DNA from: a virus
Virus record (IMG/VR): IMGVR_UViG_3300021185_002167
Location: 62,001-126,000 of that record
DNA length: 64,000 nucleotides
Strand: one strand, 5' to 3'
In this document: in pieces, positions 23,999-32,473 of the stretch
How the letters are laid out: the number at the start of each line of letters is the position of its first letter
How positions within the stretch are numbered: position 1 is the stretch's first letter
Position numbers and translations under genes: made by a program
Notes under the pieces: generated by a model
Seen by the model: the letters and a program-made list of their open reading frames with translations, nothing else
Told to the model about the DNA's origin: nothing
The model's database searches: none

Positions 23999-24262
23999 AT
24001 GAGTAGTAATGTAATCATTCCATCAAGCGTGGAAGACAAAAAAAGAATCAAAGGATGCATTGAAGAGATATCAAACTCTCTTACGCGTATCGATTCAGAA
24101 AAAGCTTTTATAAAAGAAGCAGTTGAATCATGCGCAGAGGATGTAGCAATTGATAAAAAGCATCTAAGAAAAATGGCTAACATACATCATAAGCAAAACT
24201 TAAGCGAAGTTGTTGGCGAAATAGAAGATGTAGAAGCTCTATACGAAGGAGTTATGGTATAG
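23999..24262 (+). CDS. dsbA: DsbA-like double-stranded DNA-binding protein
   Basis: This 87-residue helical protein lies between gp33 and gp59. Features: IPSSVEDKKRIKGCIEEISN, LTRIDSEKAFIKEAVES and HLRKMANIHHKQNLSEV. T4 has a small DNA-binding protein, DsbA, in the same cluster, said to assist late transcription; this is a good size and context match. AAAGGAG lies 8 nt before the start. Identity rests partly on position. Confidence 0.62.
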   Translation: MSSNVIIPSSVEDKKRIKGCIEEISNSLTRIDSEKAFIKEAVESCAEDVAIDKKHLRKMANIHHKQNLSEVVGEIEDVEALYEGVMV

Positions 24263-24858
24263 TGAACGATCCGTTTGAATCTTATAAATTGTATAATGCG
24301 CTCAAACTCCATTTCGAAACAGATGGATATGATGCTGTTAAATACCATTATAAGACAAACGTAAAGCCAACATCCTTCTTTAAACGTAAGGATAAATACT
24401 TCTTTGCCAAGCTTGCTAATACATATGAATCTGAATTAAAAGAATTCTATATAGCAAACTTTAAAAACGATGTTAAGTATGTCGGTGATATGCTTAACGA
24501 AGGTGGCGAAAGGTATTATAGAGACCATAAAAAGATTATGGAATCTCTCAGCTATCAGTTTCAAACTGATATAAATAAACTTAATGATATGGATATATCG
24601 TTTGATTCTCTCTTAACGGCAGAAGATAACAATCATCCATTGATTATAAAGCTTTGGATGCAAGAAGAAATACAGTTGGAAACAATCGTAATCTTGGATT
24701 CAATACTTGGGTTTGTAGAACGTGAAAATAATAAGATAACAGATACAATCATTTGGCCTGATATCTATAGAAAGATTATGAAATACAAACCTTTCGTAAA
24801 GTTCGATCGAAATAAATGTTTAAATTTATTAAAAAAGACCTTTACAAATGCCACATAA
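24262..24858 (+). CDS. 59: Helicase-loading protein gp59
   Basis: This 198-residue protein starts at GTG 24262, overlapping the preceding stop. It matches gp59 landmarks: YKLYNALKLHFETDGYDAVKYHYKTNVK (compare YKLYLMIKQHMNGKYDVIKYNW), FFKRKDKYFFAKLANTY, FYREY-like YYRDHKKIM and the C-terminal ILDSILGFVE. In T4, gp59 places the gp41 helicase on gp32-coated forks. Directly upstream of gene 32, as in T4. A -35 box lies inside its 3' end region. Confidence 0.9.
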   Translation: MNDPFESYKLYNALKLHFETDGYDAVKYHYKTNVKPTSFFKRKDKYFFAKLANTYESELKEFYIANFKNDVKYVGDMLNEGGERYYRDHKKIMESLSYQFQTDINKLNDMDISFDSLLTAEDNNHPLIIKLWMQEEIQLETIVILDSILGFVERENNKITDTIIWPDIYRKIMKYKPFVKFDRNKCLNLLKKTFTNAT

Positions 24859-25848: not shown

Positions 25849-25874
25849 AAAGGACTCGAAAGGGTCCTTTTTTT
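25849..25874 (+). terminator. Rho-independent terminator after gene 32
   Basis: AAAGGAC (25849-25855) pairs with GTCCTTT (25864-25870) around an 8-nt loop, followed by T residues to 25874. It lies between convergent gene 32 and the minus-strand tape measure gene and overlaps the latter's stop codon. Confidence 0.9.
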
Positions 25875-27675
25875 ATGTGTATGTATTTGCCAACATACCA
25901 CCAACAGCATCTACTGCTTGATTAGCAGCGTTTGATATTACTGTTACTGTATCACCAGCTTTTTGTTGTATGTTATATAATGCAGTATCACGTCTTGCAG
26001 CTTCCTGATCAGTCATTCTTGGTCCTGAGAATACTTGATCTTTTAATGCTTTACCTTCTCTAGATTTTGCATCAATAAGCATTCCTTTTTTATCCATACC
26101 GTCAGCTTTTGCTTTAAGACCATCTAAAGCAGTATCTCCAGCAGTAAAGACTTTATCAAATCCTTCTTTAAATCCTTCCATTGGTGTTTTACCACCTGGT
26201 AATGATGCAGCTATAGCTCCTAATCCGCCGGCAGCAACTGCTTGAGGAAATGTTGCGATCTTTTTAAATATTTTTAATAGACTAATAGTAATATTTTTTA
26301 TAATACCACCAAATCCTATATCACTAATAGTATCTCTCATACGTGCAAAGAAGTTTATAATAGTATCAGTGACTGCATCAAAGGCATCACCTACTATTTT
26401 TGTAAATGAAAATGATGCTAAAAACTCTGCAGCTTTTTCAAATCCAAAGAATCCTAATATTTTACCTGTTATAAATCTAATACCATCCAAGAGAAATATT
26501 GGGCCCATGAGTAACATTTGTTTAAAGCCACCCATAATACCTGCAAAAACTTTAGTTAAGAAACTCCCATCTTCATATTGTTTAAATCCTTTAAAGAATC
26601 CAACTATAAAGTTAAATATACCAAAGAATCTACCAAGAACTCGACCTATACCTTTAAACGCGTTACCTACTCTAGATAAGAATCCAAACACCGTTTGTAT
26701 TGGCTTTAAAGCTTTAAAGAAATTTACTATTGACGATCCAAGACTGTTAACAACTTTACTTGATGTTCCTAAAGCTTTACCAGCTTTATCAACTGATTTA
26801 ATAACAACACTTGCTTGACCAGTAAATAAATTTATAAGTCCATTTAATGGTTTAAACAATGTATTAAGAGCTCTTGAAATACCTTTCATTAATTTAGAAT
26901 CTACTGGAAAACTAAACTTAAGCTTAGTTAATGATTCTAATGCTCTAAACCTTCCAGCAAGAAAACCAGTAGTTGCTGCAGCTACTTTAGTAACGTTACC
27001 AAGTATAGTAGTCATAATTCTGAATGAATCCATAAATACAAGCTTTAACTGCTTCACCGATCTCGCTAAGAATCCAGGGGGTTTATTACCCTTTGACTTA
27101 AATATACCAGTAAAAGCTTTGAATCCATTAGTAACAGTAGTTTGAATGCTTACTCTTAAACCTTTAAAGAATCCTTGCATGCCTAATAACTTTCCAATTT
27201 TAGTACCAATTGCTGATAAACCTTTCCCTATAAGTTTAAATGGTTCTAAGAATGCTGATGCAAAGAATCCGATAAGAAGACCACGTACCGCTGTATTAAT
27301 TATAATACCTGCTATAGTACCACGGCCTTTATCGCCAAATTCTTCTTTAAGTTGTTCATAACTAAAAGATGTATATTTTGCAATAGTTTCTAATAGGTCA
27401 TTACGTTCATTATCACGTTTAGCTTCTATTCTTCCTCTGAGTAACTGTTCTTTTTCAGCTTCTAATTCATCTAATTTGCCTGATTTTAATACTTCTATAA
27501 GGTCTTCTATAGCGTATAATTGACTCGTGTCTAAGTTGCGACCTTCCGTTCTCATATAATCATTAAGCTCTTGCGTATAATACGCTGATTCTTGAGCCAT
27601 TGCTGTAGCGTCGTTTAATTCTTGTAGTTGTTCTACTACGTCGCCAAGTGATTTTTGATTAGGTTGATCTGCCAT
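25873..27675 (-). CDS. Putative tail tape measure protein
   Basis: This is a 600-residue protein with a charged helical N-terminal third (EKEQLLRGRIEAKRDNERND) and then many hydrophobic or amphipathic helices separated by Gly/Lys/Phe repeats (GFFKGLRVSI, FKAFTGIFKSKG, FNFIVGFFKGFKQ). That composition is typical of tape measure proteins. It is 600 residues against 590 for T4 gp29. It lies downstream of gp26 and its frameshift ORF, mirroring the chaperone-to-tape-measure order of many tailed phages. I see no peptidase motif. Identification is from composition, length and order. Confidence 0.7.
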   Translation of the reverse strand: MADQPNQKSLGDVVEQLQELNDATAMAQESAYYTQELNDYMRTEGRNLDTSQLYAIEDLIEVLKSGKLDELEAEKEQLLRGRIEAKRDNERNDLLETIAKYTSFSYEQLKEEFGDKGRGTIAGIIINTAVRGLLIGFFASAFLEPFKLIGKGLSAIGTKIGKLLGMQGFFKGLRVSIQTTVTNGFKAFTGIFKSKGNKPPGFLARSVKQLKLVFMDSFRIMTTILGNVTKVAAATTGFLAGRFRALESLTKLKFSFPVDSKLMKGISRALNTLFKPLNGLINLFTGQASVVIKSVDKAGKALGTSSKVVNSLGSSIVNFFKALKPIQTVFGFLSRVGNAFKGIGRVLGRFFGIFNFIVGFFKGFKQYEDGSFLTKVFAGIMGGFKQMLLMGPIFLLDGIRFITGKILGFFGFEKAAEFLASFSFTKIVGDAFDAVTDTIINFFARMRDTISDIGFGGIIKNITISLLKIFKKIATFPQAVAAGGLGAIAASLPGGKTPMEGFKEGFDKVFTAGDTALDGLKAKADGMDKKGMLIDAKSREGKALKDQVFSGPRMTDQEAARRDTALYNIQQKAGDTVTVISNAANQAVDAVGGMLANTYT

Positions 27676-27679
27676 TTAT

Positions 27680-28057
27680 CTATTTCCCGAATGCTTTGCC
27701 AGCTTCTGATATACCAAATGCACCAAGTGTTACTACAACAAATGATGTATATATTGTTTCTGAAACTTTTAAATCCATGTCCCATACAAGTGCTGTGACT
27801 AAGTCAGTCATACCAAACACTACCATTAGGAAGAATGAAATAAATCCTATGATTGCTTTTTCATTCAAGTCGTTATCGTCAATAAACAAGTCCATAAATT
27901 TTCTTTTACGAGGACCAAGCTGTTCTTTTGCAAGCCGAGCTTCTTCTTTCATTTCTTTGATTGCGTCTTCTTGTTCATCAAGCTTCTCAATCATAGCCAT
28001 GTACTTATCTAAATCAATTTCTACTTCATTTCTGCTGTTATCTTGATTATCAGCCAT
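27680..28057 (-). CDS. Two-pass membrane protein in the tail cluster
   Basis: This 125-residue protein has a long charged coiled-coil N-terminal half (DLDKYMAMIEKLDEQEDAIK) and two transmembrane helices near residues 67-90 (KAIIGFISFFLMVVFGMTDL) and 99-118. A clear AAGGAG site lies upstream on the minus strand. It sits between gp26 and the tape measure gene, an unexpected place for a membrane protein. A holin-like role or an insertion/ejection role at the cytoplasmic membrane is possible; neither is proven. Confidence 0.75.
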   Translation of the reverse strand: MADNQDNSRNEVEIDLDKYMAMIEKLDEQEDAIKEMKEEARLAKEQLGPRKRKFMDLFIDDNDLNEKAIIGFISFFLMVVFGMTDLVTALVWDMDLKVSETIYTSFVVVTLGAFGISEAGKAFGK

Positions 28058-28059
28058 TA

Positions 28060-28248
28060 TTATCTCCTTTGTTCGTTTTTTAAACGTTCATTTTCTTCTT
28101 CTATCCAATCCGTTAATAAAGAAACGTATATCTCCCTTTCCCACGGTACCATATTATCAAGTTCAGTTAAACTGTAATGGTGGTGCTGCATCATAGCGAA
28201 GTTGGTCTTATAATGGTTAACAAGACTATCGTGCGAAAGGCCTACGTA
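28060..28248 (-). CDS. gp26 C-terminal extension reached by -1 frameshift
   Basis: This reading frame begins at the slippery run at the end of the gp26 gene and is open for 62 codons to TAA at 28062-28060. It encodes GLSHDSLVNHYKTNFAMMQH and then LTELDNMVPWEREIYVSLL and a Glu/Lys-rich end. The first ATG in this frame (28194) would remove the conserved-looking first part and has no ribosome site, which favours translation only as a fusion. Similar C-terminal modules (short His/Tyr motif, then an acidic helix) are the -T parts of tail assembly chaperones in other phages. A stand-alone 44-residue product from 28194 is the alternative. Confidence 0.68.
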   Translation of the reverse strand, partial: YVGLSHDSLVNHYKTNFAMMQHHHYSLTELDNMVPWEREIYVSLLTDWIEEENERLKNEQRR

Positions 28249-28949
28249 AAAAAACTTTGAAGACCTTTTAACTCCTGGCTATTCGCCTTACCACATGATG
28301 TACAATTAAATTCAATCAAACTTGATAGAGCGGGCATTGACCCAAAGAATTCAGATAAATTTTGAAATTGTTCTGAATTTAATGATTCAACAAAATTCGT
28401 TAATTCCTTTGTTGTCTCGCTCTTAGCATCATATACATTATCTTCATCAAAGATACTATCGATACAAGCTACTAACATTGACATAGCCGCATCCATTTCA
28501 TTATCTCCAAGATTTGATAAACTATCAATATCTTTTACAGAAGGATATTTTAAAACTACGCCAACAGTATCTGTTAACATCATTTGTTTATTATCATCTG
28601 TAACGACTGGTGCTTCTATTGCATCGAAGTCTATTTGTACTTCGTTACCATGTTGGCACTCTTCGCATTTTATATTTAAATCAATCTTTTCACCAACTGA
28701 TTTAGATCTTAATGCTAAAAATAAAGTTTCAATGTCAAACATTGCTAAACTTTCAACATCAATATCATCAAATACACAAGCTTTAATAATATCTATTGTT
28801 GTCTGCATGATAACCTTGCTATCATTTGACTCCATAGCCATCATCAAAAGCTTTTCTTCTTTTACTAAGTACGGTCTATAACTGATTTCTTGTCCAGTTG
28901 ACGGTACTTCTACCTTATACCTTGCGGTATTTAGCTCTGGTAAAGCCAT
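28242..28949 (-). CDS. 26: Baseplate/tail assembly protein gp26-like
   Basis: This 235-residue protein belongs to the T4 gp26-type baseplate family. It begins LPELNTARYKVEVPSTGQEI and continues YRPYLVKEEKLLMMAMESND, a family hallmark. A zinc-ribbon-like site is formed by CEECQHG in the middle and CTSCGK near the end. It has GGAG upstream on the minus strand. T4 gp26 is a catalyst of baseplate hub assembly. The last sense codons before TAG hold a run of seven T that is a canonical slippery site, so a longer fusion (about 296 residues) is likely also made. Confidence 0.87.
   Translation of the reverse strand: MALPELNTARYKVEVPSTGQEISYRPYLVKEEKLLMMAMESNDSKVIMQTTIDIIKACVFDDIDVESLAMFDIETLFLALRSKSVGEKIDLNIKCEECQHGNEVQIDFDAIEAPVVTDDNKQMMLTDTVGVVLKYPSVKDIDSLSNLGDNEMDAAMSMLVACIDSIFDEDNVYDAKSETTKELTNFVESLNSEQFQNLSEFFGSMPALSSLIEFNCTSCGKANSQELKGLQSFFT
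28248..28254 (-). promoter_or_regulatory. Slippery heptamer T_TTT_TTT for -1 frameshift
   Basis: On the minus strand gp26 reads CAA AGT TTT TTT ACG TAG. The seven T (28254 down to 28248) are phased as X XXY YYZ in the gp26 frame. Slipping back one base gives TAC GTA GGC and the open 62-codon extension. No downstream pseudoknot was worked out. Confidence 0.7.
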
Positions 28950-28967
28950 AATAATTCTCCTATTATA

Positions 28968-29606
28968 TTATCCAAAAATTGATAACGCATTTCTTATTGC
29001 GCTACCGGTACTACTTAATGCGCCTTCTGGCACGTACCTATCATAACTAAAGCTCACATTTAACTTTTGAATAGTATCTGACGATTCGTTCGAAAGTACT
29101 AATTCATTTATAGTTGTAGGAAATGCTCCCTCAAGTTTCACACCATATATCGGCGTGTTTTTCTCATCCAATTGCTGTATAATAACATCACATGTAATGT
29201 CTTTCTTATAAGCAACTGTATAAGTTTCCATGTTTATTATACTATTTATCCAAGTATCAAATACTGTTTTCATATAATAATCATTTGTTAATAAAAAACT
29301 TAAAGATATATCATCGTGGATATATCCATAAGGTATCTTTATTGATTGTTTTTCAGCCTGGTAATCCAGTGTACTGATTTGTTTGCCTGGTATAGATACT
29401 GCATCACAAAGTAAATTAATATCTCTTGGGTCATTAATTAAATTCCTTGCAGTAAAATTACCTGAGATAACAGAACTTATAACCTGTTGTCCATCTAAAT
29501 TAAAAAGAGTCTGAACAGGTGGTGTAAATATAACTCTAAATCGATTTGCTTTTGCTAAGCCACCTTTTTTACTGATTAATGCTTTTAAATCTTCTATATT
29601 ACTCAT
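28968..29606 (-). CDS. Tail tube / baseplate tube initiator-like protein (gp54/gp19 family)
   Basis: This 212-residue protein has the tube-protein fold signature: ANRFRVIFTPP, LCDAVSIPGKQI, IPYGYIHDDISLSFLLTNDYYMKTVFD and a C-terminal GAFPTTINELVLSNESSDTIQKL strand pattern. The same fold is used by T4 gp19 (tube) and gp54 (tube initiator on the baseplate). Neighbouring gp26, gp4 and gp48 favour the gp54 role; the short length is nearer gp19 (163) than gp54 (320). It overlaps the upstream gene by ATGA. Confidence 0.78.
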   Translation of the reverse strand: MSNIEDLKALISKKGGLAKANRFRVIFTPPVQTLFNLDGQQVISSVISGNFTARNLINDPRDINLLCDAVSIPGKQISTLDYQAEKQSIKIPYGYIHDDISLSFLLTNDYYMKTVFDTWINSIINMETYTVAYKKDITCDVIIQQLDEKNTPIYGVKLEGAFPTTINELVLSNESSDTIQKLNVSFSYDRYVPEGALSSTGSAIRNALSIFG

Positions 29607-31660: not shown

Positions 31661-32473
31661 ATGAGTTTTTTTAATAAATTTCCAAAGATAGAATACGACT
31701 TTAATCGTACAGGTATTAAACAAAATATGGTTGACTTATTTAGAAGTGTAAGACCATTACCTACGTTTATTGATAATTATTCTGCATATAAGTTTTATGA
31801 TATTAAAAACGGAGAAAGACCTGATATTATTTCTGGTAGATTATATGGTACATCACAGTACTATTGGACATTCTTTGTTATTAATGATTTTTTACATGAT
31901 GGTTATCGTTCATGGCCAATGAGCCAAGAAGACTTGTATGATTACATTGAAAAACAATATTCAGGATATGTAATAGAAACAAGTCCAAGTATTGTACGTG
32001 ATAGTGATGGTCTTATTACTGACCATAGGAATAGTTTAGCAGGCAGATTTAAATTAGGCGAAACATTAACGGGTGCTACAAGTGGAGCAAGTGGTACATT
32101 AACTAAAAAAATAACTGATTTAAGTCAATTAATAGTACAAAATACAACAGGTGCCTTTATAGGAGATCAAACCGGTTCAACAAATACAACTGAACAGATA
32201 ACAGGTTCAACATCTGAAGATTCAGTTGCTACATATAGAGTGTTTAAATATATTGACGCTCCACATTATTTTTATAAAAATGGAGATGTAAATAAGAAAC
32301 CAGTAACAAACGATATTCATATTGAGGGTGGAATACCTAATCATCAGTTATTATATGTTACTAATAGAGAACAAGAGATTATGAAAAATGATAGCAGATC
32401 TCAAATAAGATATGTAGACCCTGCATATATAAATGAGTTTGTTACTAAGTTTGAAGAAATAATTAATGAGTAA
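31661..32473 (+). CDS. 53: Baseplate wedge protein gp53
   Basis: This is a 270-residue gp53-type wedge protein: FFNKFPKIEYDFN, LPTFIDNYSAYKFYDIKNGE, PDIISGRLYGTSQYYWTFFV and the C-terminal DPAYINEFVTKFEEI. T4 gp53 has 196 residues; the excess is a central insertion (FKLGETLTGATSGASGTLTK and onward, residues about 128-190) of a Gly/Thr-rich repeat domain that also appears in gp8 and gp10 here. ATG follows the gp48 stop directly. Confidence 0.87.
   Translation: MSFFNKFPKIEYDFNRTGIKQNMVDLFRSVRPLPTFIDNYSAYKFYDIKNGERPDIISGRLYGTSQYYWTFFVINDFLHDGYRSWPMSQEDLYDYIEKQYSGYVIETSPSIVRDSDGLITDHRNSLAGRFKLGETLTGATSGASGTLTKKITDLSQLIVQNTTGAFIGDQTGSTNTTEQITGSTSEDSVATYRVFKYIDAPHYFYKNGDVNKKPVTNDIHIEGGIPNHQLLYVTNREQEIMKNDSRSQIRYVDPAYINEFVTKFEEIINE

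What the first reader, a model, noticed from the sequence alone, without database searches (positions are those of the whole stretch)
28060..28949. Programmed -1 frameshift predicted at the end of the gp26-like gene
The gp26 frame ends CAA AGT TTT TTT ACG TAG. The seven T form a canonical X XXY YYZ heptamer two codons from the stop, and a one-base slip opens 62 further codons with a conserved-looking module before the membrane and tape-measure genes. This is the layout of the G/GT tail assembly chaperones of lambda-type phages, and the extension lacks a ribosome site of its own. It suggests that the T4-type gp26 family works as a tail chaperone with two products.
Basis: partly seen in the sequence, partly recalled or inferred. 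Interest (0 to 1): 0.76.

Follow-up and report, generated by a model that had tools for sequence, protein, structure and literature searches.

The report
Frameshifted tail-assembly chaperone, T4-like marine phage
In this uncultured T4-like marine phage, the gene for tail protein gp26 ends in a slippery run of seven T that should let some ribosomes slip back one base and make a longer second protein; the sequence evidence is strong, but this is the known tail-assembly-chaperone trick, already reported for T4-like phages.

Summary
On the MINUS strand a gp26-family ORF (28949..28242) ends AGT TTT TTT ACG TAG; a -1 slip on T TTT TTT (28254..28248) adds exactly 62 codons, ending at 28060. The extension is the family that cultured-phage records annotate as a separate gene 'gp51, baseplate hub assembly catalyst'. 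Among 47 representatives (under 90% identical), 41 carry in-phase T TTT TTT/C before the same module in the -1 frame. The codon before the run always ends in T although its amino acid varies (joint probability about 10^-19 under codon usage, phylogeny ignored). The extension evolves as -1-frame protein from the junction on. Seven T4-group phages instead have two gp26-family genes: a short one (gp26) without the heptamer, and a long one (gp51) with the module fused on. The gp26 model's best PDB matches include the HK97 tail assembly chaperone. Best explanation: a G/GT-type chaperone pair made by programmed -1 ribosomal frameshifting. Not new in kind: T4-like chaperone genes, poly-T shift sites and T4's two-gene alternative are attributed to Vladimirov, Gautam & Davidson 2022 by later papers. 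Frameshifting itself was not measured.

The parts
28242..28949 (-). gp26-family ORF, 235 aa; short (TAC-N / gpG-like) product
   Evidence: PF12322 T4_baseplate 2.8e-61; phrog_150 2.3e-64; AF2 model pLDDT 85, N-terminal 85-95 residues match HK97 tail assembly chaperone 2ob9 Z 7.1 and YqbN 3klu Z 7.0
28248..28254 (-). slippery heptamer T TTT TTT, in X_XXY_YYZ phase
   Evidence: T TTT TTT/C conserved in 41 of 47 representatives
28242..28244 (-). 0-frame stop TAG, one codon after the heptamer
28063..28248 (-). -1 extension, 62 aa (YVGLSHDSLVNHYKTNFAMMQHHHYSLTELDNMVPWEREIYVSLLTDWIEEENERLKNEQRR); TAC-C / gpT-like module, annotated elsewhere as gp51
   Evidence: phrog_634 5.4e-28; up to 76% identity to cultured-phage 'gp51'; -1-frame purifying selection
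28060..28062 (-). stop TAA of the -1 frame
28264..28268 (-). AAAGG, SD-like purine run 10-14 nt upstream of the heptamer; possible stimulator, confounded by a conserved Lys/Glu-Gly
   Evidence: G at -11 in 41/41 and at -10 in 38/41 representatives, but it encodes a conserved Gly
27680..28057 (-). next gene, 125 aa membrane protein, with its own SD (AAAGGAGATAATAATG)
25873..27675 (-). 600 aa candidate tape-measure protein (by position, length and hydrophobic segment)
   Evidence: weak similarity to phiM7 gp108, 2.8e-5; no convincing family hit
28968..29606 (-). tail-tube-family gene immediately upstream
   Evidence: phrog_45 1.5e-39

Best explanation
The locus encodes a tail assembly chaperone pair of the lambda G/GT kind. 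Most ribosomes stop at TAG and make the 235-aa gp26-like protein. A minority slip back one base on T TTT TTT, with both Phe tRNAs re-pairing, and make a 296-residue protein with a 62-residue C-terminal module. By analogy with lambda, many short copies coat the tape-measure protein (probably encoded just downstream), and few long copies recruit tail-tube subunits. Shown here by sequence: the ORFs, the conserved heptamer in register, the -1 frame, selection on the -1 product, and homology to T4 gp26 and to T4 gp51's two parts. Inferred: that ribosomes actually shift, the ratio, and the binding roles.
For: 1) All 77 of 80 viral-contig loci with a readable extension have it in the -1 frame, next to an in-phase T6T/T6C heptamer. 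After dereplication 41 of 47 representatives have it; the preceding codon is AGT, GAT, AAT, GCT, TCT, CAT or ACT, always ending in T across six amino acids, and the first Phe codon is always TTT against 63% usage; joint log10 P = -18.8, phylogeny ignored. 2) In 24 of 41 representatives no ATG/GTG/TTG occurs in the first 10 codons of the extension, yet the part before the first usable start is conserved with third-position variation (differences 2787:2663:5004 over 595 pairs; window vs L004 1:0:5, vs L007 1:1:9), and window vs L004 differ by 16 synonymous and 3 nonsynonymous codons in the extension. 3) Phages with one PF12322 copy have the -1 module; seven with two copies have a short gp26 lacking the heptamer and a long gp51, which in T4 is PF12322 plus the module; the paralogues group apart from the frameshift genes, SH-aLRT 98. 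T4 itself thus makes a short and a long protein. 4) Order is tail tube - chaperone - membrane ORF - candidate tape measure. 5) The AF2 model of the window gp26 has HK97 tail assembly chaperone and YqbN among its three best PDB matches. 6) Independent literature gives the same reading for T4-like phages.
Against: No proteomic or reporter evidence for this phage. Ackermannviridae relatives and RHph_I34 keep the -1 module without T TTT TTY, most with an overlapping TRATG, so separate initiation is possible in part of the family. No consistent downstream stimulatory structure (mean z -0.8 over 41; window +0.2). The fold match is partial and Z is under 8; Foldseek E is only 0.8. No family profile identifies the tape measure.
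Confidence: 0.92

Rival explanations
1. The module is an independent gene (gp51), translated from its own start by reinitiation after the gp26 stop, as annotated in many cultured-phage records.
For: Separate CDS 'gp51' in P-SSM2, Mosig, phiM7, RHph_I34, S-CRM01 and others. TAATG/TGATG overlaps occur in some, including Ackermannviridae. 17 of 41 heptamer-bearing representatives have some start codon within the first 10 extension codons.
Against: 24 of 41, the window included, have none; in the window the first ATG is residue 19, without an SD, and the conserved, selected sequence begins upstream of it. It does not explain the conserved T TTT TTY register. In T4 the module is fused to a gp26-like domain.
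Confidence: 0.05
2. RNA polymerase slips on the T run, giving a mixed mRNA population; the second product comes from transcriptional rather than ribosomal slippage.
For: Homopolymer runs can slip during transcription (established knowledge); the window has seven T.
Against: 30 of 41 representatives have only six T followed by C, and the run is held in one codon phase (NNT TTT TTY), which tandem tRNA slippage needs and polymerase slippage does not. Direct RNA data were not available.
Confidence: 0.03
3. Chance heptamer plus a decayed or sequencing-broken single ORF; no regulated shift.
For: AT-rich genome; five other in-phase heptamers occur in window ORFs.
Against: Same frame break in dozens of independent contigs and cultured phages; purifying selection in the -1 frame.
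Confidence: 0.005

Closest known systems
T4-like tail assembly chaperones TAC-N/TAC-NC (Vladimirov, Gautam & Davidson 2022, Virology 566:9-15; text not held, known through PMC12846349 and PMC10885494)
   Same: gp26-family short form plus C-terminal module, poly-T shift site in T4-like TAC-N genes; two-gene alternative in some T4-like phages
   Different: This phage is an uncultured marine member; whether its close group was in their set could not be checked
Phage lambda gpG / gpGT
   Same: Short chaperone plus rarer -1 frameshift extension, ahead of the tape-measure gene; [quoted passage not shown]
   Different: No sequence similarity tested or claimed; run of T as the shift site; contractile-tail phage
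T4 gp26 and gp51
   Same: gp26 = PF12322 domain alone; gp51 = PF12322 domain plus the same C-terminal module
   Different: Two separate genes on opposite strands, no heptamer in gp26 (FF encoded TTC TTT), no frameshift needed
Vandenendeviridae/Andersonviridae TAC locus (PMC12846349)
   Same: Conserved -1 open frame after a T run at the 3' end of TAC-N
   Different: Shift motif reported as GTTTTT rather than T TTT TTY

Membership tests
gp26 family (PF12322 T4_baseplate) | Profile match above curated cut-off over the full domain | tested here: met
   207.5 bits vs cut-off 24.5, residues 9-234 on profile 2-218 of 219
Programmed -1 ribosomal frameshift | X_XXY_YYZ heptamer in the 0-frame phase near the stop | tested here: met
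   AGT TTT TTT ACG TAG
Programmed -1 ribosomal frameshift | Heptamer, register and extension conserved in relatives | tested here: met
   41 of 47 representatives, log10 P -18.8 vs codon usage
Programmed -1 ribosomal frameshift | Downstream structure or upstream SD-like stimulator | tested here: inconclusive
   Downstream folding not consistent; SD-like purine run at -14..-10 is confounded by a conserved Gly codon
Programmed -1 ribosomal frameshift | Both products detected, site-dependent | not testable with these tools
   Needs mass spectrometry or reporters
Tail assembly chaperone TAC-N/TAC-NC (lambda G/GT kind) | Short form plus C-terminally extended form of the same N-terminal domain | tested here: met
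   Predicted by frameshift here; realised as two genes in the T4 group
Tail assembly chaperone TAC-N/TAC-NC (lambda G/GT kind) | Gene lies between tail tube and tape-measure genes | tested here: inconclusive
   Tail-tube family gene upstream; downstream 600 aa ORF is a tape-measure candidate by position only, with a 125 aa membrane ORF between
Tail assembly chaperone TAC-N/TAC-NC (lambda G/GT kind) | TAC-N fold | tested here: inconclusive
   Best PDB matches of residues 1-95 are 3fgx Z 7.9, HK97 TAC 2ob9 Z 7.1, YqbN 3klu Z 7.0; all under 8
Tail assembly chaperone TAC-N/TAC-NC (lambda G/GT kind) | Binds tape measure (N part) and tail tube (C part), absent from the virion | not testable with these tools
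   Needs biochemistry

The most novel reading that the evidence does not exclude
The frameshift is ancestral to T4-like tails and was replaced once, in the T4 branch of Straboviridae, by gene duplication (short gp26 plus fused gp51), while other Straboviridae (Schizotequatrovirus, Nanhuvirus) kept the frameshift. The Ackermannviridae went a third way, with weak shift sites or reinitiation. The tree agrees with one split but is unrooted, and part or all of this may already be in Vladimirov et al. 2022.
Probability: 0.5. Interest if true: 0.4.

Novelty: new member of a known kind. Interest (0 to 1): 0.27.

Why it matters
It corrects a widespread annotation: 'gp51, baseplate hub assembly catalyst' in cyanophage and other T4-like records is most likely not a separate gene but the tail of a frameshift product. 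It adds many marine phages to the T4-like phages with frameshifted tail chaperones. The contrast with T4, where the heptamer is absent and a second, fused gene exists, is a natural experiment on how a phage can trade recoding for gene duplication.

Tried and rejected
Downstream RNA structure as stimulator: 60-nt windows after the heptamer are only slightly more stable than the rest of the gene (mean z -0.8, 10 of 41 below -2; window +0.2), so not claimed. Upstream SD-like element: present but explained by a conserved Gly codon. Pfam on the extension gave only a sub-threshold Stealth_CR2 match, E 0.04, ignored. PDB sequence search with the gp26 profile gave no credible hit. The T4-type gp51 model gave no strong PDB match; HK97 TAC appears at Z 3.7 only. 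The first literature searches with gp26/gp51 terms returned mostly unrelated phages whose gene numbers coincide. Vladimirov et al. 2022 is not in the library.

Full report
OBSERVATION. The finding is on the minus strand. ORF 28949..28242 (235 aa) ends CAA AGT TTT TTT ACG TAG; the seven T (28254..28248) are in X_XXY_YYZ phase. A -1 slip gives F-F-Y-V-G and 62 residues up to TAA at 28062..28060. The extension has no start codon before its residue 19, where the ATG lacks an SD. The next gene (ATG at 28057) has its own SD within the end of the extension. The window lies in a 128-kb virus record with one gp26-family gene.

IS IT CHANCE? In-phase T6Y/A6R heptamers occur 6 times in window ORFs of 120 aa or more, so a heptamer alone is weak evidence; only this one opens a long -1 frame, 62 codons against at most 15 for the others. 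The test is conservation. Of 80 gp26 relatives in viral contigs, all 77 with a readable extension carry it in the -1 frame. With cultured phages added, 88 of 94 loci have T TTT TTT/C in phase within the last 22 codons; after dereplication at 90% identity it is 41 of 47. The codon before the run encodes S, D, N, A, H or T but always ends in T; the first Phe codon is always TTT against 63% elsewhere in these genes; joint log10 P about -18.8 (rows treated as independent, so the figure is optimistic). The six without it are RHph_I34 (T TTT TTG) and five Ackermannviridae-type loci.

WHAT THE EXTENSION IS. It matches PHROG 634 'baseplate hub assembly catalyst' (5.4e-28) and more weakly the C-terminal end of the longer 'baseplate hub' family PHROG 150. 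In cultured phages the same stretch is annotated as a separate gene gp51 or left unannotated. Differences among 35 relatives in extension codons 5-18 fall mainly at third positions of the -1 frame (2787:2663:5004); the window and L004 differ by 16 synonymous and 3 nonsynonymous codons in the extension, against 49 and 61 in gp26. The protein is therefore very probably translated, and selected, from the junction on. In 24 of 41 representatives no ATG, GTG or TTG lies in its first ten codons, which argues against free-standing translation.

T4 AS A NATURAL CONTROL. T4 gp26 is a PF12322 domain alone; T4 gp51 is a PF12322 domain (residues 1-201, 3.9e-52) followed by the module. Seven phages of that group (T4, S16, KARL-1, phage 31, RB43, phiP4-3, Krischvirus) have two PF12322 genes; ten others, with the module in the -1 frame next to gp26, have one. 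In the seven, the short gene's C-terminus often keeps a K/R-G-x-x-x-F motif, but none has the heptamer (T4: GAG TTC TTT; KARL-1: GAA TTT GTT; RB43: GCG TTT TTA). The tree separates the two-gene paralogues from the frameshift genes with SH-aLRT 98; Vibrio VS2 and Cronobacter LPCS28, both Straboviridae, fall with the frameshift genes. The tree is unrooted, several branches are long, and many forks are open.

FOLD. The window gp26 model (pLDDT 85) has as its best PDB matches, over residues 1-95, 3fgx (Z 7.9), HK97 tail assembly chaperone 2ob9 (Z 7.1) and YqbN 3klu (Z 7.0); in Foldseek, HK97 TAC chains were the only listed hits with probability above 0.5, at E 0.8-1.6. This is suggestive, not proof. 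The T4-type gp51 model has a similar order of elements plus three C-terminal helices.

MECHANISM. Most likely a programmed -1 ribosomal frameshift producing a short chaperone and a rarer long one, working like lambda gpG/gpGT (roles in lambda: PMC5009743). Steps shown: ORFs, heptamer, conservation, selection, homology. Steps inferred: actual shifting, efficiency, binding partners. No stimulator could be established.

KNOWN OR NEW. PMC12846349 cites Vladimirov, Gautam & Davidson 2022 for poly-T -1 shift signals in TAC-N genes of T4-like phages, and PMC10885494 cites it for T4-like phages that carry a short gene and a longer fused gene instead of frameshifting. The original text was not held; from memory its abstract names T4 genes 26 and 51 as TAC-N and TAC-NC and says frameshifting is conserved in several T4-like groups. 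The present locus is therefore a new member of a known kind. [quoted passage not shown]

LIMITS. No expression data; rows of the heptamer statistic are related; the tape-measure assignment of the 600 aa ORF rests on position and weak similarity.

Noticed in passing
L090, L094, L095, L096, L097 (gp26 3' ends): Ackermannviridae-type phages keep the module in the -1 frame but lack T TTT TTY; four have TAATG overlapping the gp26 stop, Salmonella SP1 has no ATG/GTG/TTG near. How they make the long or second product is unexplained.
   Followed up: partly
27680-28057 (-): A 125 aa ORF with a hydrophobic segment sits between chaperone and candidate tape measure; small hydrophobic ORFs occupy the same place in phiM7, RHph_I34, IC12, Mosig and Melnitz, some similar to each other (phiM7 vs Melnitz 1.8e-7).
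   Followed up: partly
31661-31672 (+): The gene at 31661..32473 starts ATG AGT TTT TTT AAT, an in-phase T TTT TTT whose -1 frame stops at once; a useful non-programmed comparison.
   Followed up: no
24831 (+): In-phase A AAA AAG six codons before the end of ORF 24262..24858; a -1 slip would add 15 codons.
   Followed up: no
L102:1501-2794 (RB43): In RB43 the gp51-like gene (1501-2244) and gp26-like gene (2237-2794) lie on the same strand and overlap, unlike T4 where they are divergent.
   Followed up: no
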